Shown: one piece after another, positions 1-61,696 of the stretch
How positions within the stretch are numbered: position 1 is the stretch's first letter
Layout of the letters: every line of letters starts with the position of its first letter
NCBI GenBank assembly: GCA_903813345.2
Contig: CAIIXF020000009.1
Span: 24,714,740-24,778,739, forward strand
Reading direction: 5' to 3'
Length of the DNA: 64,000 bases
DNA from: Owenia fusiformis
Taxonomy: Eukaryota; Annelida; Polychaeta; Sabellida; Oweniidae
Position numbers and translations under genes: made by a program
Notes under the pieces: generated by a model
What the model saw: the letters and a program-made list of their open reading frames with translations, nothing else
The model's database searches: none
Told to the model about the DNA's origin: nothing

Positions 1-570
1 TATAGTGCATTACTTCTGGGACAACCCTCGTATGTGTTATGTAACTCACAAGTACATCCTATACCCTAGGACCCAACACCCTGCACCATTCATCTATTCT
101 CCACCTTGCAGTTCAATGGTCCTCCACTATATATGTGTTATATAATTCATCCGCACATCCTATACCCAAATGACATAAATATATGTAACTCACCTGCACA
201 TCCTATACCCCACGACACAACTCCCTGCACCATCCATCTATCCTCCACCATGCGGTTCAATGGTCCTCCACTATTTATGTGTTATATAATTCATCCGCAC
301 ATCCTATACCCAAATGACATAAATGTATGTAACTCACCTGCACATCCTATACCCCAGGACACAACTCCCTGCACCATTCATATATCCTCCACCATGCTGT
401 TCAATGGTCCTCCACTATATATGTGTTATATAAGTCGTCCGCACATCATATACCCACATGACATAAATGTATGTAACTCACCTGCACATCCTATACCCCA
501 CGACACAACTCCCTGCACCATCCATCTGTTCTCCACCATACAGTTTAATGGTCCTCCACTATCTCCCTAA
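1..570. repeat. 144-bp tandem minisatellite, about four copies, cut by the window edge
   Basis: The same phrase, GTTCAATGGTCCTCCACTAT or a near copy, recurs at about 111, 255, 399 and 543, giving a regular 144-bp period. Each unit also carries two related sub-blocks with CACATCCTATACCC. Because 144 is divisible by three and one frame lacks stops, positions 106-570 read as a 154-codon frame with 48-residue repeats. The composition is simple and rich in Pro, His and Ile, and no family is recognisable, so I treat it as satellite DNA and not a gene. The array starts before base 1. Confidence 0.9.
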
Positions 571-1559: not shown

Positions 1560-4500
1560 CTGGATAATAGAAGATATACAGGATGATCCAGAAGTAACGT
1601 TAATTTTACAATTTCAATGAGTTGTCACTAACAACAATTATATTACTAATTCAATTTTATCAAGCGCCTCCCTACACCCCTACACTCAATAAAGGTAGTC
1701 GATCGGAACTTAATTGTGTGATCTGAATTTCAAGGGTGGTTCATCTCATTGTAGATTAACCATCACGACCTGTCGCAAATACACGCAAATTACCTTGTGT
1801 TTCCCCCATCCCCGTTGCATAGCACATACGTCCAGCAGCTACGTCCGTTTCTGGAAGGCATGCGAAACTAACCCTATCTCCTTGCTGAACAACTTCTGTA
1901 AGTTTAACGAGCGCTATATCACTATCACTGGATAGATCATTGTAGTCCGGGTGGTTGATGATCCTCTCAAAACGATATTTCTGCTCCGTTGAATCAATGG
2001 AAAAACGATTGTGTTTTCCAGTCCGGGCGTCAAGTCGATCTAATGCACGTACTCTACAGAAAATAAAGAATCTGGAATGACTTTTAGAAACATTTCTGCT
2101 GTAACGGGTACATTGATTTTAGCACTTGATAGGCTAACCCTACTATCACACCAAACTAGTTCTCACTACGTTCTCGAAAACGGGCTTCAACTGTGTACGA
2201 ACGGACTGGACCTATTTACAAACTTCATCGAACGTACTCGAACGGATAGGTCCTTTAGAACTTAGACAATGCTCAAAATGTTCTCGTGCTCGTCACGTTC
2301 TACAATTAGAACGAGTGAGAACGTACTAACGACGAGCTGGACGTACTACGAACGGAACCGTCGCACTTCAATCCTACTAGGGACGTTTTAACAACGAGTT
2401 GAACTGTCTGAGGACGTGTTGAGAACGAGGTAGAACTAATTGCAAACGGGTTTAAACTGATTAAGAACGTATTTAACACTGCTTGTGAACGAGTTAGCAA
2501 AAATATAGCTATCACACCAAACAAGTTGCCACTGCGTTCTTCAAAACTGGTTTCAAACTGTGTGCGAACGGAATGAACGTAGCTGCAACTTTCTAAGGTC
2601 TATTTACGAACTTTATGAACGTTCTCAGACGGGAATGTGATTTTAGATTTTTGAATCGATTCAAAATTCGATGGCGACCATACCGTCCTGTAATCAGGTC
2701 ATGTTGACCTTCTAGACTAAGGGACGCGTTCTACGACGTTGCACACCGACGTGGTGCGACCTGAATGAACTGCGAACGAGATGGACGTATTGAAGACTGT
2801 TTAAGAACGAAGAAGCTAATTATTTCAGAAATATTTCCCGACCACAGCCAGAATGAGCCCGTTTTATGACGTTTTCGTAGGTCTGGCAAGAACGGGTAAG
2901 AACTAGTTTGGTGTGATAGGGGGGTTAGGGATGTCGAAGTTGTTTAAGGTTGGCAACGATCGAACTCACATGTTTTCATTTGGCACTATTTAGGTGAATC
3001 CAAGCTTTGACATAAATGTTTGAGAAATAGTATTGAAACCACCCAAAGTTTTCTCCTGATGACCATATCGTGAAATATTGTGTTTTATGAATTATGATGT
3101 CGGCTTTGCGGATAGATGTCGACCCTCTGATACGCTTATGGACTTCGAGACTGTATTTTGTCTGTCCCACATCATTTAAGACTGAATGCCTTATCTTGTA
3201 TGAATACTAGAATCTACAACTACTATTGATGCTATGAGTATTGGTTAATCAATTCATTTATTCCACTAGGAACTTGAATGGTGAGGGGAGGTGGCATTAG
3301 ACGTTGTTTCCTTTCACGTTAGATTCTAGTTTGGAATTGAAAGTGTTTTTTTCTTGCCCGGTTCTGTAACAATTTTTGGTTCTCAATTGCCTTATGACAT
3401 GATGCTATATTTGTGTTTTAAGGGACAAGCAATACTTACGAGTCAAAGCAGTGTGCAGCCGTCAAAAGCCACTGTGGATGGATCAACGTGGCCCCACAGA
3501 TGTGTGAATTGTCGAGATGTATAGACACCACCCATGGCCAGCTTCCGGGTTTCGCTTCAACGCCACCCACTATGCGATTTTGTGCAAGATTTTGTTGAAT
3601 TGCCGGCGTTCCGCATTTATGATCCGGAAACTGTGTGGTGGATGCTGGGTGACGTGTGCTATATGTAATTTGAGTTGTCGTAGGAGGTATCGTTGTAGAT
3701 GGTCGTTCAACTGTAAAATAAAAGCAATCACACATATTTAGTACTTTAGGTGAAATAACAAGAACGACCAAAAGTAATATTATTGCCTGAAAATGAATGA
3801 TAAATAACACGGGGACAATGTTCATATTACCTACTAACACTGTACAATTTAAAAAGTATGTCGAAGTAATCATTCAAAAAGAGTACATGCGTACTAGAGG
3901 TTAGTTGCTTAAGTAGAACCCTTTCATTTCACGGTGTTACTGTAGCATATGTAAGTCCATGCAGTATGTTCAAAATGCATCGAGTTTAATCGTATGCACA
4001 GTTAGTATTTAATAAGAATGCATTATGAGTTCTTAAACGTGCCGAAACATAGCAACTGACACAAGCATTGTATTGCGAATCTGAAAACTGAAGCCTGGAT
4101 AAAAAAAGAAACATGCATTAGTACTACAGATAACACTAGGTTTTACTTCGTTCTGAATGGGCAGAAAAGTTAAACTATGTCTGAATTTTTTATTACATGA
4201 CATACAAGTTAGAAAGTTGGAAAACTTGCTTTGGTTAATCTTTAACATAGTGATTATGTGCCAGATACGACAGACATCATTAAAGGGACATTGTTTGCAG
4301 CCCAATTTTTCTTGATCTGCTAGCTATAACCATTTTTATACTATTCATTTTCAGCAAAAAATGGGCAAATGTTTTAATATGGTCAAAATTGATTACTTAA
4401 AAATGCATTTTGCTTTTTTCATGTGGGCTGCAATCTTTAAAGACTTCACACAGGAAGTGATGGCATCAGCTCCTGAGACTACATAGTACGTTAGGCAAGA

Positions 4501-19500: not shown

Positions 19501-22500
19501 TGGATGAATTTTTGGACAAAATTTCTTTTTGGGTTCATATAAACCCGGAGTATATAACATATGCGCTGATATTTTCTAACATGTTAATAAGAAATGTATA
19601 CAACCAGCTCCTAAAAGAGTACATATTCTTTGACAGCTTAACTTAAATTTACAACGGAAATAACAAAATTGTGTCTGATATTGTCGTTGTTTGTCATTTA
19701 AACGGTATTAGTTAAGGGCATTTTTCTGACGCAGCTTTAAAAAATGATGCATCAACAATGTTAATAAGACCAGTCTGTTGGAGGATACACATGTTTGACA
19801 AATCGTATTCATAGTTAAAATATTTCATTCCATGGGTAACATATACAATAACATCGCCTTTATGGGAGCTGATCGTATAAATCTCATTTACTTGTTAGAA
19901 AATATCAAGGCAATCGATTCACTGTATATGCTTTAATCCGAGTTCATATTAGCCGTAAAAACCCAAAACTTTATTTTTGTTAAAACGTCCATCATTTAAG
20001 CTTTTTTAAGAAAAAGTAAACAATATGATCAATATATACCATTTGGACATGATTACCAGTTATGTTGTTATGCACACATGCCAGCATACATGTCAAAGTC
20101 TTTGATAGAATAACAGAATGTGATTATATCAATTATCGTAAACAGATCAATAAACCGAAGCATTTCTTTCGTGATCAAAGTCAAATCTATAGTTCTTTAT
20201 AGAAGAAATAAAATTGATTATAGTGTAAATTTTGTTTGTACTTCAAGTTCTCGAAAAGCTGGTGAAAATGTCACGACCAATTCTTATATGCATAGTTTTG
20301 GTAGTATTGACCGCTGGTGCATTTGGACATGACGTATCTATCCGGGGACGCTTCACCTGTGGCGGGGCGGCGGTAAAGAACGCTCTTGTACGTTTGCTTG
20401 ATCAAGACTACCTGGTGGATGACATCTTAGCTGATGGATGGACGGACGAGAATGGAGAATTTGAATTATCTGGAGACGGAGTTGATGGTTGGAACGGAAA
20501 CCCCGATGTGTTTATCAAACTGGAATACAACTATTTGAGTAAGTGTAAATGTATTTTATTTTGCTAGTTTTGTGATACTCCCAAGATCTGCTTGATGTGA
20601 ATTAACAAAATATACAGTTACGAAAGTTGTGCCAGGAAAAAACAGTTTTTTTTATTTTTTCGGAGATAAAGACCTTACAAACGGAAACAATTCAAACATT
20701 TTTAAATATTCATAAAAAATGAGGAACGATCAATATGATTTATCTTAAATCAAGGCAGCGCACATGGGAGGCAGTTTGGCAATCAATCAAACAAACAAAC
20801 AAACAGATGGTATTTCACACTATTTCAATATATATTAATACATAATATAACTTATCAGAACATTTGAGCGATGGATTCTGATAAATATATTCCTGAGAAA
20901 TGAAAATGTTTATTATTACAACATCGTTTTGTTCATTTGTTCTGACCAGACAGTGAAAAAAAATATTTTAAAAATCTCTATTTATAAAAATGTGAGACCA
21001 AAATAGAGAGAAAATAATTGAAAAAATAAAAATAGGGCTTAATGAAAACGTTTCTATTTATCTCAGCAAATGATATTCTATCTTGAATTTGAAAGAAAAA
21101 TATGACGAGTAATACTGGTTAATTGTTTGTTTTATTTGTGCATAAAACACTCCAAATATCAGAAGAAAAAACATTTATAACATCTTGTTGTAAAGATAAG
21201 CTATATCGATTATAATTCCGAAAGTTGAAATTCAAAATTCAAATATATGAACAAACTAAATATTATAATAAATAATATTATTATACATAAATATAGATTA
21301 TTCTAATATGATACGTGACGTTACGATAACTAGAAAAATTTACTTTTCTATATAATAATCGAATAGATTTTATTAAAATTTGAGACCAAAATAGAAAAAA
21401 ATAAGATAATCATTTTGAATTTGAAAGAAAAAAGGCGAGCGATAAAATAAAAAAAATATATACACAACATCTTCTTGTAAAGATTATAACCAAAAATTTA
21501 AAATTTAAAATGGAAATAAAGATATATAATATAATTATATATTTGCATTAATAATGTAACGATAAATGTTTTAATTTGTTTGTTAGAATCGAACTGGTAA
21601 CGTTTGAGAAAGGTTAAATAATTAAAAGCGAATCAACCTTTTGGAGTTGTTTATTACGATTTACTATTTGACATTTGCAAACGAATCATAAAATTACATC
21701 ACACAGATAAGTAAAATACCTAGTTTAAAGAAAAATAGATTTTGAGAAGCACTGGCAACAACATCTCAAAAAGTTATATTTGACAACTTGCCAAACTATT
21801 TAAAAAAATGTTATCATGCATTGACCATGTCAAAATATTTGGTGATTTTTCATAAAATATCACACCATGCCATATTTGGGATTTGAAGCTGGGAGAGGTT
21901 TTATGAACCATCGCCTTATTTTTGCTATGGTTTCAACGTAAGGAGACGATATAGGGATGCGTTTCCAACAAAATCTAGTTGATTTTTGGAACTATGTAAT
22001 ACGCTTCCCAAAAGAATTGTTAGGTTTATAAGTTTTTATATTTCTTCCTATAGCGACAGTACTATAAAAGTTAGTCTTAGCACAAAAATATTGAGTCGAG
22101 AAATCATGTCTACTAACTAGATATTAATTTAAAGAACCAAACTGATATTGCAGACGTATGTTTCGAAAATGGTTGTTTAAAGTCTGCCATAGCAGGGTTG
22201 AACACCGGTTCAACTTACTTTGAAATTATTTGTCGTAGATTGAGTGAAGCTATATTTAAGAATTTTTTCAATGAACAAATCAATGTGTTCCGTACGATCT
22301 AAAATTATTAGAAAATATTATAACTCTTTAAGATTATATTTCTCAAAAAATGAATCTATCTTTATTACGCTTACAAATGCATATACATATATGTCCGAGG
22401 CGAGTATATGAGAATCCAAAAATGAATCGAGCAAAAAGTGAAACATGATTTTGATTTATGTTTATGTGCATATGTACGTTCATGTGAACTTTATTGCGCC

Positions 22501-25500
22501 TTTAAATAATAATAAAAATTTAATAAGTGGTATGGTTTGATTGAAAAATGAAAATTATTTATAAATTATGAATACTTATGAATGAGCCTCCTTCAACAGT
22601 TGAAATATGGCTACCGGGTAGACGATACCACCGCAAACGGACCTGTCGATAATAACGATACTAAATAAGCCCTGAATATTATATATAATATCTACAAATA
22701 TACATAGTTTGTAGAATTACAATTAAGGTAGCCTATAATATTCAATTACTGCATATTGATATTTTTCTATTCACAGACAAAATGGTCGTAAAAGACAGAA
22801 CACTCCGCGTAAGATATGAGACGTCCGAAATCACGAATAATTTTAGTGGCAAAAGCGATATAGGAACAATAAATGTCAACAATGAACACTGCAGAGTATA
22901 TCAACTGTTCCGAGAAGCGATCCTTGACTATACCCTGAGGTCTGAGAACGACAACCTGCCATATGATTACCTCACTGTACACACAGATGCCCTTCTGTCT
23001 TTGGTATCGGGAACTCGTAAACCCTGGTCCAACATCGATACAATCAGGGTACCGGGTGGATATCCATTGAATGCCACCACGGCAAGGCATGAGCTGGCAC
23101 ATACATTGAGACATGCAATGGACGGTGGCCGGCTACACTGGTGGGCAGATATTTCAAGGTACACTGTAGCTATAACTATGATACGACAAGGTGCAAGGCA
23201 GAAAAAAGTATTTTAGTTTGACTTAGCCCATCTTTGTTTAATCAAAACCTGTTCTCTGGTTGTGTAGTTTTCCTCCTATTTGATCCAAAAACTATTAATT
23301 AAGTATAGTTTACCCGTCAAAAGATCAAATGCTATTGAATCTATGGGCCCATTTATCTATGTTAATGCCTGCTGCGTCTTTTAATTGAATGTGGTCTGCA
23401 CGATCATACTATGTCTGGGTTTTAAACGTAATTCTAATACTGAATGATATAAAAGTTAGACGCTTTGATATCATCTTATCTTTTATTTGTGTCGAACCTT
23501 GGGCATCAGTTTAATCTGATAATGTAGATCACATCACTAAATAACTTTAATACGTATTTGTTATGCTCTAGATAAGAACTTAATAATGGGCGGCCCTTTT
23601 ATAAATTCCTTCAGACAAAAAGAACCGTCAAACATATGAAATCGTGTTGCAATTCAATTAAAGTTACACTACAAAAACAGTGATATGTGCAAAGTAATAT
23701 TATTCTCGTAATTAATTTGAAAGGGAAAAACTTCTTAAAATGTGTGGCAAAATCTTGATTGACGTAATAGTTCCGAAATAAAGTCGATTTTCTCTTTTAA
23801 TAATCACAATCTTCCTCGAGGTTAACGTACACAACTCCGAGCAGCTGTATACCTTTGACAAATCAATAATTAACGGATCTATTTTGATACATTGTCATAT
23901 TACTAGATCCGAATGAATATAGTCACACTGCCATCGCAAGCCAACATTTTGAAATTGAACCTAAAATATGCTATGGGAAATTCGAGGGTCAAAGAATCTC
24001 TAGAATAGCTAGTAAGGATAAAAACGTAACCACAACAATCAAACCATAGATCTATGGACCATCAGTCTGATCCGCAAAAAATTCAATTAGAGATATTTTG
24101 CGGTCATAGCCCAATAGACACAATTAAAGGACCAGACATGACCAGACATGTTCACACAGATTTGATAGGTATGTTCCATTTTTACTAAAATGTACACTTT
24201 ACTTTTAGTTACAGCTATGTTCAACCACACCATTGCAACATGAGGTCAAACCCAGGATTTGCTTTCAATGAAGGATGGGCAATATATTGGTCTGGAAATT
24301 GCAAATGCTCTGAGGGATCCGATATGAACGTCGAAGGCCATGTGGCTGCAAGATTGTGCGAACTGGCAAGATGCAAAAGCGACAGCCAAATGTGGGACAT
24401 CCTAGAGTCCAACCCAGGCACAATTCACTCGTATGCGGAATTTGAGGAGAAGCTCTTCAGCAAATACCAACCGGCTTGTTAAAAGTGAATACCATTGGAA
24501 CTGCGAACTGGATTTTACTTGGACATGTTTTAGTCATAATATAATATGTGCTTGTACAAGAAATATATTTTAAAATGCTAGACAATTCACGACTCGAGCT
24601 TTGCTTCTACTACATTTTTGAAAAGAGTGACGCATAAAGACGAATCAAAATTTGTAACGACGCACTTTCCTCAAAAGATCAAATGCTTGACCTCACGCAA
24701 TTGTATTTTGCTTAATTTTATTATAATTTGGTGCCATAATATTATAATTTTCATTTTAGTTACACACGTGACTGGGTTTTAAATACAACATTATATATGT
24801 AGGACTACGGAATGTCAGTACAAATGCACTCACCTTCTGTTCATGCTTTGTACGACATTCTGTCCAACTCCAATTTCACCATATGTAATGCCCTTATCAT
24901 CATTTGTTCTTTAAATATGGCATTACCATTTTGACTATATGGCCATTATTTGCATCATGATGACGAATCGACAATGTTAAACAGCTGTTTCTTCAAAATA
25001 AAATCAACGCTTTGCTAAACTACTTGTATTACTTTTTTATAATCAATTTTCTTAAGTGTTTAATTTATGATTTTTATAATACATACGTAGGTATATCCAT
25101 AAACTATCATAAAATGTCTCTAAAATCTTTATTTTATAATATTTTCTCGAGAAATTCTTAACAATTGTGTTATATGTTGTATTTTCAGGCTAAAAGGGTA
25201 CCACCGATACATTATGGTTAACTAATGGTTGCTATGTCAGCACGAACACATGGTACCCAGGAGAGACCAAAATTAATTAATAAAAGCTGGATACGAATGT
25301 TTTTATTTATGTTTTGTAGCTGTTTCTCATTGTTTCCAAGTACAACTGATTTTATGAAGACAACTTCTATCGGCTATCCAAACTCAGTAAGGCTTAAATT
25401 ACAATGTCATGCCCAAATTAGATATAGAGTGCAATTGTTTATGTGACAATTTTGCCTGGGTAAACCATTCTTTTGCGTTCTAAAAGGAATATTCCTTGCC

Positions 25501-28500
25501 AGACCCTTTCTCTCTTGATATGGTAGCTATAATCATATATATAGTTTCCATATTTAGCAAAACATGGGAAAATGTTTTAATATGGTCAATATTGATCATT
25601 TAAAAATCTAGTGCTATTTCAATGAGCTGCCATCTTTTAAGATTTCTTGCAGGAAGTGATGTCATCAACTCTCAACTTCTATAACCTTGCCCATAGCAGT
25701 ATAGGAAAGTAGCACAAAATCACTTCTAGACAAGTGATCATTACTTTCTGTGTAAAAATATTTTCAGGGCTTGTCAACTTAGAATAAAAGAAGAGATTTT
25801 CAGAAGGATTAAATGAGATACAAAGTTGAAAAAGAATATTTAGCTTGTTTTGCAATTCTTAATAGCTCCTCACCTAATGCTATATGCAAAGTTGAGAGTC
25901 GATGACATCACTTCCTGTGTGAAATTTTAAAAGATGGCAGCTTACTGGAATTGAGCATCACATTTCTAAGTGATCAAATTTGACCATATCAAAACATTTT
26001 TGCGTGTTTTGCTAAACATGGCAAGCATATATATGGTTATAGCTACCATATGAGGAGAGAGATGGTTTGGCAAGGAATATTGCCGGGAGCTTAGTTCTAC
26101 TAAATATAATGCGTCATACAATAAGTAAATTTCTTTACAGACTGCCCATGGTTTCAGTTTCTGCATACCATCAACGGTCTTTCTTATGCTATTATAGATC
26201 TTGACCATGATTTTTTTCTCATTTTCACAGATGATTGATCAAAAGAATTTCTGTCGGCCATTTTGAGAAGTTGATGTGCCTGATTCGTCACATAGATATT
26301 GCACTTAATTAAATCATGACATCACCGTGCAATCTTACCGACGCATTACCTGAACTACTGAATCATTGCTGAACTTGATAAAGGTTGACTTCATTATGTG
26401 TAACTCTTAATTGATCATACATTGTGGATAAACAACTGCATAGGGTTCGGATAAAAACTTCAACATCAATAGCGGGTTTGCTAAATAGCTTTCTAATCTT
26501 GTTGAAGTTTCGTTTCTAATGAGATATTAGGAGATCTGGATTTTTGATCTTTAAGGATCAACACTTCTATTTGATGGCATATTTAAATTCTGTGTGTAAT
26601 TTTCTAATCAACAACTTTGATTTGCACAGTCATTTACCTTTATTCAATTTCCAAGATGTTCAAGTTTTCTGAAGCTAAATCCCCATTGACACAATGTTAA
26701 AAAATCTGTAAACGTTCATCTACTCTTTAAATGATCACAATTTTAATGTTAAATCACAGTCCAAATGTCCACAAGATCATTTACTACATTCCAATGGTGT
26801 TTTACATCAACAAATTGAGGACTCCCCCAAGATAAATTTATAATGTAAAGATTGGTACCCTAATTAAACATATAAAAGAATAATACATAGTTCATACCTG
26901 CATAAAATCTCTGATTTAATTTTATCAAAAATAAAAATTTAGAGACATTTTATGAGATTTTTGATATAATATTAATACCCTCGTATTTTGTAATATATCT
27001 GGAGCATCAGCATTGCCTAAGTCCAATAGTCCGATAAACATCCGATGCTTGCATTCAAATTAATAGACGCGTATAATAACGGGTATCATAAAACCGCTTA
27101 TGTTATTGCTAGGTAGGTGTAGTTTCGTTTGGTCACATGTGAATGTTTTTTCAATTTACTCACCCGGAAATACACTGAATACTGTTCCCAGTACATCGGG
27201 GATCGAAACCCTGTAAATGTATTTTTACACAACACAGGGTTGTTCTGTATTAGGTTCTTATTTCCAAGTGATTAAATGACAGTACTTTTTGAACCGCATG
27301 TGTCTTTATATAGTGGAAAACGAATTAGGTAAAATAAAGATTCTTTTATTGGCATACTCTCGGAAAAGCTCTATAGGCATAATCATCAAAATTTTAGATT
27401 TTGAAGTGTAAAAGTTAATGAGTATAACTATTTTGGATTTGTTTTAAAAAGCTCTGGGAGTTTGAAACATGCAATCTCAGAATCAAGCAAGAAGGCACTG
27501 AAAGTTATTTTTATGATTAAACAAAATTTTAAGTTTTCAACTTTCAATGTAGAAAAAATTGACGTGTAAGAGAAAACAGTTCCTGAAAAAATGCAAAATC
27601 GTGCAAATTAATCCATTTAGCTATAGATTCCCTAATACGAGTACATTCGATAAAATATTGGTTGAACTATGTGCAGATAGCTTAATCAATATATAATTTC
27701 GTGATGAAAATACATATGGAATAACATGTTAAAAAAGTACGTTTAGAATAAAAAGACTCCTAAAACAATGGTCCCCACATAGCTATAAGGACGTGACGTC
27801 TTTATAACAGAATGGAATGGACATCCGTCAGAGTAAGTTTTTATTTTCATCACATTGACCAAGAAGGAGGTCGATTTGTATCCAATATTGTATCCGTATG
27901 TTAATAAAAGCATCCGGTTGTTGAAAAGCTAGACAGCCACGGCAGCTCAAATAAGCGGGTGAAACTTCAGCGAGCAGGATGAGAATAGACTTACTACACA
28001 ACGCAACCAAGACGTTATGAAATTAATCAAATAACGCCCTGGGTGAGGAATTCTCACTCGATTATTGGGGGCCCAGGGTAGAAGCTACTAAACTTGAAAT
28101 GCAAAGAAAATGGTAGAGCCATCCGAGAGTATAGAAATCTTGGAAGTTGTATCAAAAATGATTAGAAATTGGAAAGATACTTAAGATTTAGGTGTGAACA
28201 ATTATTATCTATTTTTATAATGGCCAGGATTATAAATTAATTAATTTGTGTAACGTAATTTTAACAAGGTTAAGAGATTGATTTTGGGCGTAAGAACAAC
28301 AACATCTTTCATCTGGGTTTCTACATCTCGAATATAGTCATAGTTTTCTCCTGTAAAGCATTGCGAAATATTGTGTTTGGTGGATTATAGCTTCGGCTTT
28401 GTGGATGGATGTTAACCATTTGATACGCTTATGGACCTCAAGGCTGTATTTTGTCTGTCCCACATCATTTGAGACTGAATGCTCTATCTTGTATGACTAC

Positions 28501-52000: not shown

Positions 52001-54020
52001 CCAAGGTTACTTTTTTATTTTAGAATATCAGCCATTGGGACATTTCCCATCAACTCATGACTTATTGGCAACTGAAACTTCAATTTGATCATACTAATGT
52101 AATTTTTGCATTCTCTCGGGTGAATATACAATAGGCCATAATAAGTGCATTTCATTATTTCATTGGAAATTTCAGAGGTCTACCAACTGTAATTAGTTTT
52201 GGAATGCTGGTTTCCCCTTGCAATTAATATATACTTATCCTGGAGTGGCAAGTGTACTATAGATCATTTGCATGTTGTGTTTAAAATTGATACAACCTCC
52301 ATACATGTTGCAAGACCTTACGACTCCATGTAAAATAATATTCCGACATCATTGCTGAATATTTCTTTCGGGGTACCCACTATCAATGTTTTTGTATACG
52401 AATGTATATGTATGCATATTAATTATAATATTAGGAACGTAAAGCAACGTGTTTTGAGAGAAATTGTACGTGAACGTGTATGATAACAGTCATCTGGGGA
52501 TTGGTTCTCCCCTTCTAGTATTTATAACTAGCCCGATTGAATGTAAAGGTACAAGGAATAGTGGGAATAAGGTCACTGGAAACCCGATTGAGAGGAGGGG
52601 ATAGTAATCCCTTCTATATAAAACACGTACGCGTTTGCGTTCTCTTAAAAACGTGGCACTAAACCACCCTATTATAACGAAAGCACAAATATTAAATCGG
52701 TAAAGACCAAGGAGTTATTCCTAAAATAGGAATGGTTAGAACAGGTAAACAAACAAAACCCCACCATCCCTGAAATTAATCGAACACCTCCCCCCCCTGA
52801 ACCAAACCATCATCACAACCCACATCACAAGACATTGACTCACCAGGGACATCATTTGACATAGGTTTTGACTACATGACTTAACTGTCAGGTTGATACC
52901 TCTGACGATATAATTGATTTTCCACCAAAATCGTAAATTATGTACGAGCTATTGCTATGCTAATTGTTTTATGAAAGAAAGGGGGACATAAAGGAATACC
53001 ATGCATGTTTATGATTCTATTAGAAATACTGTTATGTATAGATACAAGAGCAAATTATGTCCAGGGGAAATAATCACAAAACACTTTGTATATAAATGGG
53101 ACAATTGAATTACTTTTTAAATAACGTGGCTCTTATTACCGTTGTACATGAAGCATATATTGTAAATAAGAGGTAAAATTGTTTATTGAACATTACAGTA
53201 TATATAAATGTCTGATTTTGTATGGTTTTTTTTCACGAACTATTTAATTTCCGAATTGATGGATTCTCTTAATGGGTGTACCATTATCTTCTAAATGGAA
53301 TATATGTCGAACATTGCTGACTTTTATTAGTTGTTCATGAAGCTTTTTTTTCTCCAGGGAGAGCTATTGACTGCTTTAGCTGCATGTCTGTCAACAACAG
53401 TTTGGAGGCGTGTGAAGATACATTTGGCCCAACTGGGAGTGTCATTCCATTGTTGAGCAGAGACTGTCTAGTAGGTTATCCGCGATTCAAGGCAACACAC
53501 TGTGTTAAGATAACTGGAACAAACGGTGAGTTTCAAATAGAGAACAATATAACTCCAATAGTTTCACTATCATTTTCGATATTTTCAAAAATCCTTAATC
53601 TCAGCTATGAATAAGATCCAAGATACAGGTCTAACTAGCGGGCTGGTCAAATAACCAATCAAATGAGCTGATAGTGATCGGTTCGATACATCGGATTGTA
53701 CAATAGTACACGTCCTTCCTGCAGAGCACTTCCACATACGATTCATAATAAATGTATTCGATTTTCATCTTATCGGTCTTATTGTTTCAGAGGATGGACA
53801 TTCAATGATATTGCGGACGTGTGTAAAAGACAATTGGGGAAATGGTTGTGGAGATATTCCCTTTCTTGACCAAAAAGACCCAGAATTAAAACATTACGTA
53901 CATGGGTGTGTGACTTCATGCAATACAGACGGATGCAATACAGCTGATAGTCTTCAAAGACGTACCTGGATATTTTGGCTTGCAATGGTATTAGGAACTT
54001 TGATGACAAATATAGGATAA
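49010..54020 (+). CDS. Ly6/uPAR-type three-finger protein, probably GPI anchored
   Basis: Exons 49010-49082, 53358-53525 and 53791-54020 join in phase 1 at both junctions, giving 156 codons plus stop. Exon 1 encodes a signal peptide (FNIVMTLVLTFIDE; starts at 49010, 49019 or 49025 are all in frame). The mature part begins GRAIDCFSC, the usual Ly6 opening, and continues with Cys residues in ACEDTF, RDCLVG and THCVKITG. In exon 3 they lie in RTCVKD, GCGD, GCVTSC and the closing CNTDGCNTA. The end is a hydrophobic tail (WIFWLAMVLGTLM) fitting a GPI-anchor signal. The pattern resembles invertebrate quiver/sleepless-like proteins, which modulate ion channels, but that function is only a family inference. 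Exon 1 is the least certain part; it is supported by phase and signal character. Confidence 0.85.
49140..49339. mobile_element. CAGGCCCGTAGCC-type element (hAT-like MITE), 200 bp
   Basis: The ends are CAGGTCCGTAGCCAGG and the inverse CTAGTTACGGGCCTG. The interior has CATGCAGTTTTTCA, CAAGTGACTTTGGCC and GTGAACCCCC, all shared with the copy at 56193-56408. Ends beginning CAGG suggest hAT, an inference. It lies in Ly6 intron 1. Confidence 0.7.
49941..51550. mobile_element. Composite of nested inverted-repeat elements
   Basis: Outer ends: AAAGGAGCACGTAGGTTATC plus CGCAAACAATTTCA at 49941 and its exact inverse ending at 51550. Inside are two further inverted pairs: 50115-50490 (CACTTTTTCAAAG-like ends with TTTTCACCAAAAATGCA), and 50601-51513 with ~45-bp ends starting CACGGG and containing CTAGAGTATCCGCGTATATT. 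The interior has no plausible ORF. All of it lies in Ly6 intron 1. Confidence 0.75.
50601..51513. mobile_element. Inner terminal-inverted-repeat element, 913 bp
   Basis: About 45 bp at each end are nearly identical reverse complements (CACGGG, CTAGAGTATCCGCG, GAGTATGACCGGTTCT). The body between shows no transposase. It appears to have been inserted just inside the right end of the outer element. Confidence 0.7.
51551..53357 (+). other. Rest of Ly6 intron 1
   Basis: No exon is seen. A TATATAAA box at about 52616 is isolated and not linked to an ORF. The acceptor TTTTCTCCAG precedes 53358. Confidence 0.45.
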
Positions 54021-58183: not shown

Positions 58184-61100
58184 ATGGCTGCTTCCTCGGA
58201 TGAAAAAGCGTTTTTCAGTGCTGTGCAAATTGGAGAAAAGAAGCCCTGTAGAGCATGTACAGACTTCAAATCTTGGTCTAAATTACAAGGCAAATCCACA
58301 AAATCCACTTCGGAACGTAAGGTAACACTTGTTATTGTGTCTGTTGTTAATGAGATTGATTTGAAATTAGTCTTCAGATATGTAATATTTTTCTGTGTTG
58401 CATCAACTTATTGAAGCTCATTTACCACCAAATGGCAAACAATATCCACGTTTTGATTATCGTATCGCACAATAAGCCATCATCCAACTTCCCCTTCTTT
58501 GCTCTAGACCAACATTTGACTGATCTGCAACATTGACAGATTCGATTGAGAATTCTAAATAATCAGAGACATCTATTCAGAAGGCTATGTTTCATTTTCA
58601 GTATGACAGATACACAGATAGCCTGGCAGAAGTTCCTGATAAGCCACCAGAAGACTGCCCCTTAGACAGGCCACAACTGGGCCGTAATACCTGGTCATTT
58701 CTTCACACTATGGCTGCATACTATCCAGATAAACCATCCACAACTGAACAGAAAGACATGAACAATTTCTTACAACTATTCTCAAAAGTTTTCCCTTGTT
58801 ATGAGTGTGCAGAGGACTTCAAAGAAAAGTAAGATCTATATATTGCAGTAGTAAGAGGGTTGGTGATCCCCCATTGTACAGTACCACTGATTTACCTTCT
58901 TCTAAGGCCACTGTATCGTGGCCTTCCAGTACAGATATATTCCTGCATGAACAACTGGTCATGTCGTAATCATAAAATTTGAAATCATGTGTATGTCTAC
59001 CATTTTTCCACATCACAATTTGAATTGCGAGTTTTGGTCTTATTACCTCACCAAAAATTCCAAAACACACACAAAGTGATCAGTGTATTAGTTCACATCT
59101 TCTGGATTGCTAACTTAGAATTTACAGCCAGTTACTAATGTCAGACGTTAACGACATTTCGTCCAGTTTTCGAACATCGCCATTTTTCTTGGAGCCATTT
59201 TGTTTTAATTTTAGACGAAATCCTGTCGAAATCATGTCATATCTCATCAAGAAGCCAAGCTGGATCCGGTTTGATTAATGATTTATTTATCTGGCGATTT
59301 TTAAAATATTCAATTAATTTATGACACCCCCGCCAGCTTTTTTCAAATAGAGTTCACGTATTCCAGATGGAATCCCCTCTAGCCAAGTATTGGCTAGAGA
59401 CTCGAGTAACCACTGATGACCCTACATGTATCTTAATTGCAAGATGAACCTCTCTATGCTCTCTTTGATTCATTGGCATTTTATATTTTTGATGATTTAT
59501 TGATCAATATTGCTGAGAAACGTATTCACACATAGCGAGGCAAGGTGTGTCCGATTCCAGTTCGGGGCTTAAATCCTTAAGTGAGCAATATATATTATTT
59601 TGGCTATTAAAGGAATATGCTTAGGTCAATTAGTTAATGTGAAGTTAATATACTTGTACTGCACAGATGATAGATAATTGAATATACACTTTATTTACTG
59701 TATGGTTGTTTTTATGTCCCCCTTATGTCCCCACCACATAGTGTGGGGCCATATTGTCGGCCTAGGCGCGTCCGTCTGTCCGTCCGTCTGTCTGTCCGTC
59801 CGTACGTCCGGGAGTTTTCTCCAAAACCGCTGCAGATATCACCTTCAAATTTTCAGGGATAATTTATGAGTGCATACAGATGTGGATGAAAAAAAATTAA
59901 CTCGATACCTACTTCCTGTCGGCCATTTTGAAGTCAAATGCTAAAATCCTTGTCTGCAAACTTTAAGAAAAACGGCTTCACAGTTGCTTTTAAAACTTTA
60001 ACATCTTGTTCAGCTCACTTCATTCTAGATCTGATTAGGTTTTGGACCTGTTAGCTCAGTCATGTCAGCCATTTTGAATGTTTTAAGAAAAGTTAGCGCA
60101 CGATAATACTTTGTATCATATTGAATGGTGTTTTTCAGTTTTCATGCTTTAACTTTTTAGTAGCTTTATAAATAATTTCAGGTGTACTTTGTTGTAAAAG
60201 CTTATGTTATTGTTAACAGTAGGTATATGTGATAATTTTGTAAAAAGATTTCAGCAAAAACTCATAATCACTTTTTTATTGTCGGCCATTTTGGATTTTT
60301 CCGTCCTAAAATCTTGTCTGTAAAGTCTTGTCTACGCGTTTTCAGGTGAACCGTTTGGTAGATCAATTTCAAATTTTCAGGGATGATTCTTAGTATGAGA
60401 ATCTAGATCTGATTAGTTTTTGGGCATTCTTGGTAAATGTCAAGGCAGCCATTTTGGATTTTCCGTCCTAAAATCGTGTCTGTAAAGTCTTGTCTACGCA
60501 TTTTCAGGTGAACCGTTTGGTAGATCAATTTCAAATTTTCAGGGATGATTCTCAGTATGAAAATCTAGATCTGATAATTTTTACGGCATTCTGGATAAAT
60601 GTCAAGGCAGCCATTTTGGATTTTCCGTCTTAAAATCTTGCCCGTAAAGTCTTGTCTACGCGTTTTTAGGTGAACCGTTTGGTAGATCAATTTCAAATTT
60701 TCAGGGATGATTCTTAGTATGAAAATCTAGAACTGATTAGTTTTTGGGCATTCTGGGTAAATGTCAAGGCAGCCATTTTGGATTTTCTGTCCTAAAATCT
60801 TGTCTGTAAAGTCTTGTCTACACATTTCCAGGTGAACTGTTTGGTACATCAATTTTAAATTTTCAGGGATGATTCTTAGTATGAAAATCTAGAACAGATT
60901 AGTTTTTGGCATTCTGGATAAATGTCAAGGCAGCCATTTTGGATTTTCTGTCCTCAAATCTTGTCTGTAACGTCTTGTTTACATGTTTTCTGGTTAACTG
61001 TGTGAGGGATCAATTTCAAATTTTCAGGGGTGGTTCTTAGTATGAAAATCTAGAACTGACTAATTTTTTGTCATTCTTGGTAAATTTTAAGATGGCCATT

Positions 61101-61696
61101 TTGGATTCTCCGTCCTCAAATTGTGTCGGTAAAGTCTTGTCTACTCATTTTTAGGATAATCATTTGACAGGATTACCCATAGGTGGGGACATATTGTACA
61201 CATTTGTGTTCTTGTTATAAAGTTATAATGAAGTATAGTATACATGTAGCTACTGTATGGTTAGATTACATGTAGTTTAACCTTCAATATGTGTCAAATC
61301 TTCATACTAAGGGCAAAGCTGTAACTATTGTTGCTATTCAGTTATTGTTGATAATATTGTTCTAATATACATGTAAATTACAACAACCTACTGGAGTATC
61401 ACTGACGATGATCAATCATACAATTCAGGAAGCAATTAAAACAATTCTTGCATGTGTAGAATCCCCATGGCTCTTAGAGACCACATGTCAAGTGACCAAA
61501 CCTATATTGTTGTTGTATATTTTGTATTTTCAGTATAAAGATTCATCCTCCAGAGACAAGCTCCCAACAGATTCTGTCAAAATGGCTTTGTGAGAGACAC
61601 AATGATGTCAATAAAAAACTAGGGAAACCAATATTTGACTGTCGGAAAGTTAATGAACGGTGGCGAGATGGTTGGAAAGATGGCAGTTGTGATTGA
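58184..61696 (+). CDS. GFER: FAD-linked sulfhydryl oxidase ALR (GFER/Erv1 family)
   Basis: Exons 58184-58321, 58602-58828 and 61534-61696 join in phases 0 and 2 into 175 codons plus stop; human ALR is 205 residues. The enzyme reoxidises the import receptor MIA40/CHCHD4 in the mitochondrial intermembrane space and passes electrons to cytochrome c or oxygen. Visible signatures are the N-terminal CRAC motif in [32 protein letters not shown], the redox CxxC in [10 protein letters not shown], the second Cys pair ([18 protein letters not shown]), and the terminal [16 protein letters not shown]. The frame stays open upstream to a possible acceptor at 58163, so an extra 5' coding exon is possible. 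Intron 2 contains a large repeat element. Confidence 0.96.
59711..61219. repeat. Dispersed element with GTCC microsatellite and ~162-bp tandem units in GFER intron 2
   Basis: The left part has CCACATAGTGTGGGGCCATATTGTC, given here as CCACATAGTGTGG then GGCCATATTG, and then a GTCC/GTCT run (59770-59812). It is followed by units anchored on GCCATTTTGGATTTTC at about 60288, 60451, 60613, 60775, 60936 and 61098, spaced 161-163 bp. Each unit includes CAATTTCAAATTTTCAGGGATGATTCTTAGTATGAAAA-type sequence in shorter conserved pieces. The right end is GGTGGGGACATATTGTAC. Short or long versions with this start are familiar from marine invertebrate genomes. Confidence 0.8.

What the first reader, a model, noticed from the sequence alone, without database searches (positions are those of the whole stretch)
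20268..24482. Transthyretin-like domain fused to an HExxH...NEGxA metallopeptidase-like domain
The signal peptide, transthyretin-like domain and [15 protein letters not shown] pair sit in one phase-consistent three-exon gene. Transthyretin-like proteins are best known as small nematode secreted proteins, while this peptidase-like part matches no named family I can place. The fold could serve as an adaptor that targets a zinc peptidase outside the cell. This is my best candidate for an under-described system in the window.
Basis: partly seen in the sequence, partly recalled or inferred. Interest (0 to 1): 0.75.

Follow-up and report, generated by a model that had tools for sequence, protein, structure and literature searches.

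The report
Secreted transthyretin-like zinc peptidase, unnamed family
An animal gene appears to make a secreted zinc-dependent protein-cutting enzyme with a transthyretin-like front part; the same two-part protein occurs in a few bacteria, so the animal line probably took the gene over from bacteria.

Summary
The gene is real: three exons (20268-20538, 22777-23158, 24209-24482, +) join in phase into 308 aa with a signal-like start, a PF01060 TTR-52 domain (E 8.5e-11), then HELAH (195-199) and FNEGWA (E239) that no Pfam or NCBIfam family claims. Its genome holds four more loci: three intact genes with the same two introns in the same phases, one damaged. A pattern scan of 84,980 prokaryote genomes found seven bacterial loci aligning over both parts at 27-36% identity. 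H195, E196, H199, H225 and E239 are identical in 17 of 17 proteins compared. A model of one bacterial member matches thermolysin-family (M4) peptidases over nearly its whole length (Z 15.8, 222 residues) and TTR-52 at its start (Z 11.0). Best reading: a secreted gluzincin-type zinc peptidase whose transthyretin-like part belongs to the catalytic body, probably of bacterial origin. Zinc, activity, substrate and expression are untested; other eukaryotes could not be searched, so transfer is likely, not shown. New variant of a known kind.

The parts
20268..20538 (+). exon 1: signal-like start (res 1-20) and most of the TTR-52 domain
   Evidence: PF01060 at residues 26-83
20268..20327 (+). signal-like sequence, residues 1-20 (by eye)
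   Evidence: [20 protein letters not shown]; no signal-peptide predictor was run
20343..20516 (+). PF01060 TTR-52 match, residues 26-83
   Evidence: E 8.5e-11
20539..22776 (+). intron 1, GT..AG, phase 1; lies inside the transthyretin-like fold
   Evidence: residue 91 maps to model residue 76, between strands 67-72 and 78-81
22777..23158 (+). exon 2: last strands of the transthyretin-like fold and the HELAH half of the peptidase part
23088..23102 (+). HELAH, residues 195-199: predicted zinc ligands H195, H199 and general base E196
   Evidence: identical H, E, H in 17 of 17 aligned proteins
23159..24208 (+). intron 2, GT..AG, phase 2
   Evidence: same phase in 4 of 4 intact genes
24209..24482 (+). 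exon 3: NEGWA half of the peptidase part and C-terminus, stop included
24267..24281 (+). NEGWA, residues 238-242: predicted third zinc ligand E239
   Evidence: E and G in 17 of 17 aligned proteins
24423..24431 (+). IHS, residues 290-292: conserved motif near the C-terminus, role unknown
   Evidence: IHS invariant in 11 of 11; I290 and H291 in 15 of 17, gaps in the other 2

Best explanation
The gene encodes a secreted zinc endopeptidase of the gluzincin type (clan MA(E), thermolysin-like). Shown: the gene model, the TTR-52 domain, strict conservation of HExxH and of a downstream Glu, and an M4-like fold in a model of a bacterial homologue. Inferred: H195 and H199 with E239 hold the zinc; E196 activates water; the transthyretin-like beta-sandwich packs on the helical part and forms the N-terminal beta lobe of one catalytic body; the protein cuts other proteins outside the cell. 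The family arose in bacteria as a secreted two-part protein, entered this animal's lineage by horizontal transfer, gained introns and multiplied to at least four intact genes.
For: Both parts in one ORF in seven bacterial loci, 27-36% identical to the window protein over both parts; Pfam puts TTR-52 above cut-off in 2 of these 7, below it in 3 and does not list it in 2. H195, E196, H199, H225, E239 identical in 17 of 17 proteins, E260 in 16 of 17. Model of bacterial L010: pLDDT 81.2, pTM 0.83; HEFGH sits in helix 179-193 and the Glu in helix 220-236. Best structural neighbours are M4 peptidases: aureolysin Z 15.8, rmsd 3.3, 222 aligned, model 9-309; thermolysin Z 15.4, 224 aligned; M1 aminopeptidases about Z 11; TTR-52 Z 11.0, 101 aligned, model 1-119. 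Residues 110-309 number 200, so at least 22 of the 222 aligned residues lie in the transthyretin-like part. Intron 1 lies inside that part. Four of five genomic loci are intact. The four animal proteins form one clade (98/99) among bacterial sequences. The window gene lies on a 38.9-Mb contig with spliceosomal introns, about 16 kb from a split trypsin-like gene, so it is not loose bacterial contamination.
Against: No activity, zinc or expression data. The spacing HExxH-X39-E is longer than the X19 of M4 proteins. Profile comparison with M4 is weak: probability 7.6%, E 0.0046, although both motifs fall in register; the peptidase part alone gives 3.2%, and only HExxH aligns. In the model the stretch between the two motifs has low confidence (blocks 191-220 at pLDDT 62, 50, 53). 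The peptidase part of another member (L007) folded alone gave pLDDT 58.6 and at best Z 5.4 to aureolysin; this may mean that it needs the other part, or that the model is poor, and protein and truncation differ at once. The place of the animal clade in the tree rests on branches of 89/88 and 85/83 and on my choice of root. No other eukaryote could be searched, so descent within eukaryotes is not excluded.
Confidence: 0.55

Rival explanations
1. The transthyretin-like part is a separate targeting module: like nematode TTR-52 and TTR-11 it binds phosphatidylserine or a receptor and brings a self-sufficient peptidase to a surface.
For: TTR-52 is the best solved relative by sequence (E 3.1e-7 with the 11-protein profile) and among the nearest by fold. 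TTR-52 and TTR-11 bind phosphatidylserine (passages of PMC6079064). In VgrG2b of P. aeruginosa a TTR-like fold, described as implicated in protein-protein interactions, precedes a gluzincin domain (passages of PMC6899460). A TTR-52-like domain also precedes a lipoxygenase (L022; 5ek8).
Against: The M4 superposition runs through this part; the linker is only some seven residues (strand ends 107, helix starts 115); the pairing is kept in all animal genes and the seven bacterial loci. None of this excludes a second, binding role.
Confidence: 0.25
2. The animal proteins are inactive pseudoenzymes kept as binding proteins.
For: No substrate or activity is known; the residue after NEGWA is Ile in the window and Glu in the three intact paralogues.
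Against: H195, E196, H199 and E239 are kept in 4 of 4 intact animal genes that are only 46-62% identical, and in 13 of 13 bacterial proteins. That residue also varies among the bacterial proteins.
Confidence: 0.12
3. The gene is an old eukaryotic gene, lost in most lineages, and the bacterial copies are recipients or equally old.
For: Bacterial members are very patchy: full-length in 2 of 377 Myxococcota, 1 of 297 Acidobacteriota and 2 of 299 genomes of the class of G006. Intron positions are already shared by four diverged paralogues.
Against: Bacterial members are more diverse than the animal ones and lie on both sides of the root used, in at least three phyla (titles); remote relatives are bacterial too.
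Confidence: 0.25

Closest known systems
M4 (thermolysin/aureolysin) peptidases
   Same: HExxH and a following Glu on two helices; whole-length superposition of the bacterial model, Z 15.8
   Different: no Pfam M4 match; X39 instead of X19 between HExxH and Glu; weak profile similarity; transthyretin-like N-terminal part
C. elegans TTR-52 / nematode transthyretin-like (TTL) family, PF01060
   Same: PF01060 above cut-off; fold Z 11.0 (bacterial model); profile hit E 3.1e-7
   Different: solved TTR-52 chain is 117 residues with no peptidase part; here the domain is joined to a peptidase part. A title in a reference list calls the TTL family 'nematode-specific' (Jacob 2007, seen)
VgrG2b of Pseudomonas aeruginosa (gluzincin, often annotated DUF4157)
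   Same: TTR-like fold directly before a thermolysin-like gluzincin with two His and a Glu ligand (passages of PMC6899460)
   Different: part of a type VI secretion spike; no DUF4157 match was listed for the window protein. Its sequence was not compared here
Cyanothece 9R-lipoxygenase (5ek8), N-terminal domain
   Same: related transthyretin-like domain before an enzyme (profile E 3.4e-5; fold Z 11.0)
   Different: the enzyme is a lipoxygenase

Membership tests
PF01060 TTR-52 domain | Pfam score above the curated cut-off | tested here: met
   window 42.7 bits against 24.9; three intact paralogues 36.9-44.0
PF01060 TTR-52 domain | transthyretin-like fold | tested here: met
   bacterial homologue only: TTR-52 3uaf Z 11.0, rmsd 4.4, 101 aligned; the window protein itself was not folded
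Clan MA(E) gluzincins | HExxH and a downstream Glu ligand, conserved | tested here: met
   17 of 17 proteins; role as ligands inferred
Clan MA(E) gluzincins | thermolysin-like fold | tested here: met
   bacterial L010 model, M4 Z up to 15.8, M1 Z up to 11.5; poor for the peptidase part of L007 alone
Clan MA(E) gluzincins | binds zinc and cleaves peptide bonds | not testable with these tools
   needs protein
M4 thermolysin family | match to the Pfam M4 models | tested here: not met
   none listed up to E 10 for the window protein (HMMER's filters drop most weak hits) nor up to E 1 for 7 bacterial proteins
M4 thermolysin family | HExxH-X19-E spacing | tested here: not met
   X39 in the window; X19 in the aligned M4 proteins
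M4 thermolysin family | catalytic His after the Glu ligand (His231 of thermolysin, recalled) | tested here: inconclusive
   H291 (IHS) is a candidate, invariant where aligned; the profile alignment did not reach it
M1 aminopeptidases | HExxH-X18-E spacing (recalled) | tested here: not met
   X39 in the window
DUF4157 (VgrG2b type) | Pfam match | tested here: not met
   not listed up to E 10 (filters as above)

The most novel reading that the evidence does not exclude
An unnamed bacterial family of thermolysin-like peptidases uses a TTR-52 domain as its N-terminal beta lobe; it was passed to animals, and the nematode TTR-52/TTL proteins, which bridge phosphatidylserine and receptors, descend from such a domain after loss of the peptidase part.
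Probability: 0.12. Interest if true: 0.85.

Novelty: new variant of a known kind. Interest (0 to 1): 0.58.

Why it matters
It gives a coherent two-domain family, in at least three bacterial phyla and one animal genome, that Pfam and NCBIfam do not name on its peptidase side. It shows PF01060, best known from nematodes, joined to a likely peptidase in an animal whose only PF01060 matches found belong to this family (3 of 3), and in bacteria. That makes testable where the nematode transthyretin-like proteins came from, and offers a possible case of a secreted bacterial enzyme taken over and duplicated by an animal.

Tried and rejected
Led nowhere: no relative among 114 pattern matches in viral contigs, none in plasmids or phage records at the limits set; Rfam gave nothing in the window; the viral structure library gave two matches at E below 0.001, 119-127 columns each, that I did not follow. 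COX1 was not found in the genome, so the animal could not be placed by its mitochondrial code; the rRNA match was not used. Literature: searches gave 0 papers, two each, one (VgrG2b); some searches gave longer lists of which I read only passages of PMC8504978 and PMC6079064. I saw no paper describing this fusion in those ten searches; subscription journals and preprints are not held.

Considered and rejected: exon shuffling as origin of the fusion (intron 1 is inside the transthyretin-like fold); two separate genes (bacterial ORFs and 4 of 4 intact genes carry both parts); assembly contamination (spliced genes on three large contigs: C3, C6 and C9). Membership in M4, M1 or DUF4157 fails the tests listed.

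Rows left out: the damaged locus L004 (in-frame stop in exon 2; no exon 1 match up to E 10 in the 7 kb fetched) from all alignments; remote HExxH proteins L018 and L028, although they keep HExxH and a Glu-Gly, and the other partial matches, from the 17-protein comparison. The 17 are 4 animal, 7, and 6 that I chose. Of 19 window ORFs of 105 aa or more, 10 were scanned with Pfam.
Full report
Observation. The gene stands as described: three exons, consensus borders, consistent phases, 308 residues. The alternative acceptor at 24215 also keeps frame, but paralogues favour 24209. PF01060 matches residues 26-83 (E 8.5e-11). Nothing in Pfam or NCBIfam claims the rest; the weak rows listed there are below their cut-offs.

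Relatives in the same genome. Searching the 498-Mb genome with the protein listed 14 exon matches at five loci, the window's own included. I cut out the other four. L001 (C3) and L002 (C9, 19.67 Mb) are three-exon genes and L003 (C9, 15.14 Mb) a four-exon gene, all intact; L004 (C6) has an in-frame stop in exon 2 and no exon 1 match. Intact copies are 46-50% identical to the window protein and share both introns in the same phases. Six cysteines (31, 129, 249, 268, 273, 308) are invariant in 4 of 4, as fits an extracellular protein. A PF01060 search of the genome gave three matches, all in this family; L003, whose domain is split by an intron, was missed there, so this is a lower bound. One search, with the L003 peptidase part, found the same five loci.

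Relatives in bacteria. The profile of the peptidase part, scanned over 84,980 species genomes, gave 49 pattern matches, of which 7 encode a relative: record titles name delta-proteobacteria or Myxococcota (4), Pyrinomonadaceae (1), Thermoleophilia (1) and Solirubrobacteraceae (1). The scan needs one of two short motifs, so it undercounts. The ORFs begin with signal-like sequences (by eye) and carry a transthyretin-like part before the peptidase part. Pfam lists TTR-52 above cut-off in L009 and L012, below it in L006, L007 and L010, and not at all in L008 and L011. Identity to the window protein is 27-36% over both parts. With the 11-protein profile A5, 26 of 377 Myxococcota genomes match, but full-length only G004 (two loci) and G001, and from position 75 or 84 on G091 and G326; the other 22 genomes match in parts only, most in the transthyretin-like part. 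In Acidobacteriota 6 of 297 match, one full-length; in the class of G006 3 of 299, two full-length and one from position 36. The family is rare and patchy. None was found in viral contigs, plasmids or phages.

Conservation. In an alignment of 17 proteins (4 animal, 13 bacterial) H195, E196, H199, H225, E239 and G240 are identical in 17 of 17, W241, A242 and E260 in 16 of 17; H291 is identical in the 15 that have a residue there. The counts depend on that alignment, most of all for the remote L041 and L042.

Structure. AlphaFold2 on bacterial L010 with six homologues gave pLDDT 81.2 and pTM 0.83. Against PDB, VIA-align puts M4 peptidases first (Z 15.8, rmsd 3.3, 222 aligned, model 9-309), M1 aminopeptidases at Z up to 11.5 (model from about 71), TTR-52 at Z 11.0 (101 aligned, model 1-119) and a cyanobacterial lipoxygenase N-domain at Z 11.0. 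Foldseek's own list had nine matches at E 0.001 or less, led by that lipoxygenase (9.1e-7), vibriolysin (1.3e-5) and, fifth, TTR-52 (1.9e-5). The zinc-site helices have block pLDDT 86 and 79, the stretch between them 50-62. The peptidase part of L007 alone gave a poor model (58.6) and only Z 5.4 to aureolysin. I read the pair as a hint that the transthyretin-like part completes the fold, but the two jobs differ in protein as well as in length. Residue distances could not be measured.

Sequence link to M4. Four M4 proteins from 3 of 6 genomes gave profile A6. hhalign with A5 aligned HExxH with HExxH and NEGW with NEAM-type motifs, at only 7.6% probability (E 0.0046); with the peptidase part alone only HExxH aligned (3.2%). 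So the case for thermolysin-like rests on motifs and fold, not on sequence profile.

Sequence link to TTR-52. The single window protein hits 3uaf at E 0.28, the bacterial profile at 0.0016, the joint profile at 3.1e-7, with the lipoxygenase 5ek8 at 3.4e-5.

Origin. The maximum-likelihood tree of 17 proteins, rooted on L041+L042, groups the four animal proteins (98/99) within the bacterial spread, on the side of L008/L011/L035 and L015/L043 (89/88), the other six bacteria forming the other side (85/83). Both deep branches are below the usual threshold, the root is my choice and L035 is a long branch. Together with both-domain ORFs in bacteria and intron 1 inside a domain, horizontal transfer from bacteria followed by intron gain and duplication is the simplest account. 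Without other eukaryotes this remains an inference.

Mechanism. Most likely the protein is exported, folds as one beta-plus-helical body, holds zinc by H195, H199 and E239, uses E196 as base, and cuts extracellular proteins. The substrate is unknown. The transthyretin-like part may also bind surfaces: nematode TTR-52 and TTR-11 bind phosphatidylserine (passages of PMC6079064). VgrG2b shows a TTR-like fold directly before a gluzincin (passages of PMC6899460), so the neighbourhood of the two folds has a precedent, though in a different protein and family.

Verdict.

Noticed in passing
window 1756-2118 and 3436-3873, minus strand: Two exons of a trypsin-like serine protease gene, the upstream one after a Thr/Pro-rich stretch (Pfam Trypsin E 9.7e-15 and 2.7e-15).
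   Followed up: no
window 25488-25678 and 25889-26081: Long inverted repeat, arms 84-87% complementary, about 1 kb downstream of the gene; looks like a hairpin-type mobile element. A 29-base piece of it occurs only at these two places in the window.
   Followed up: partly
window 53667-54020, plus strand: ORF with a weak Quiver/Ly-6-like match (E 0.016, below cut-off).
   Followed up: no
window 38-562 and 60285-61155: Tandem arrays of a 144-bp unit (3.6 copies) and a 162-bp unit (5.4 copies).
   Followed up: no
L022 1357-3273: Myxococcota protein with a TTR-52-like domain (just below cut-off) and a lipoxygenase domain, the same pairing as in Cyanothece 5ek8.
   Followed up: partly
L020, L021: Bacterial ORFs with a TTR-like domain at the C-terminal end and no peptidase part; this domain is wider in bacteria than the fusion.
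   Followed up: no
L041 337-1938, L042 415-1902: Remote relatives (HEYGH ... AF[AS]EGWAEF) in the genome of L010; L041 has a weak DUF6055 match (E 0.002, below cut-off), a possible link to a wider superfamily.
   Followed up: partly
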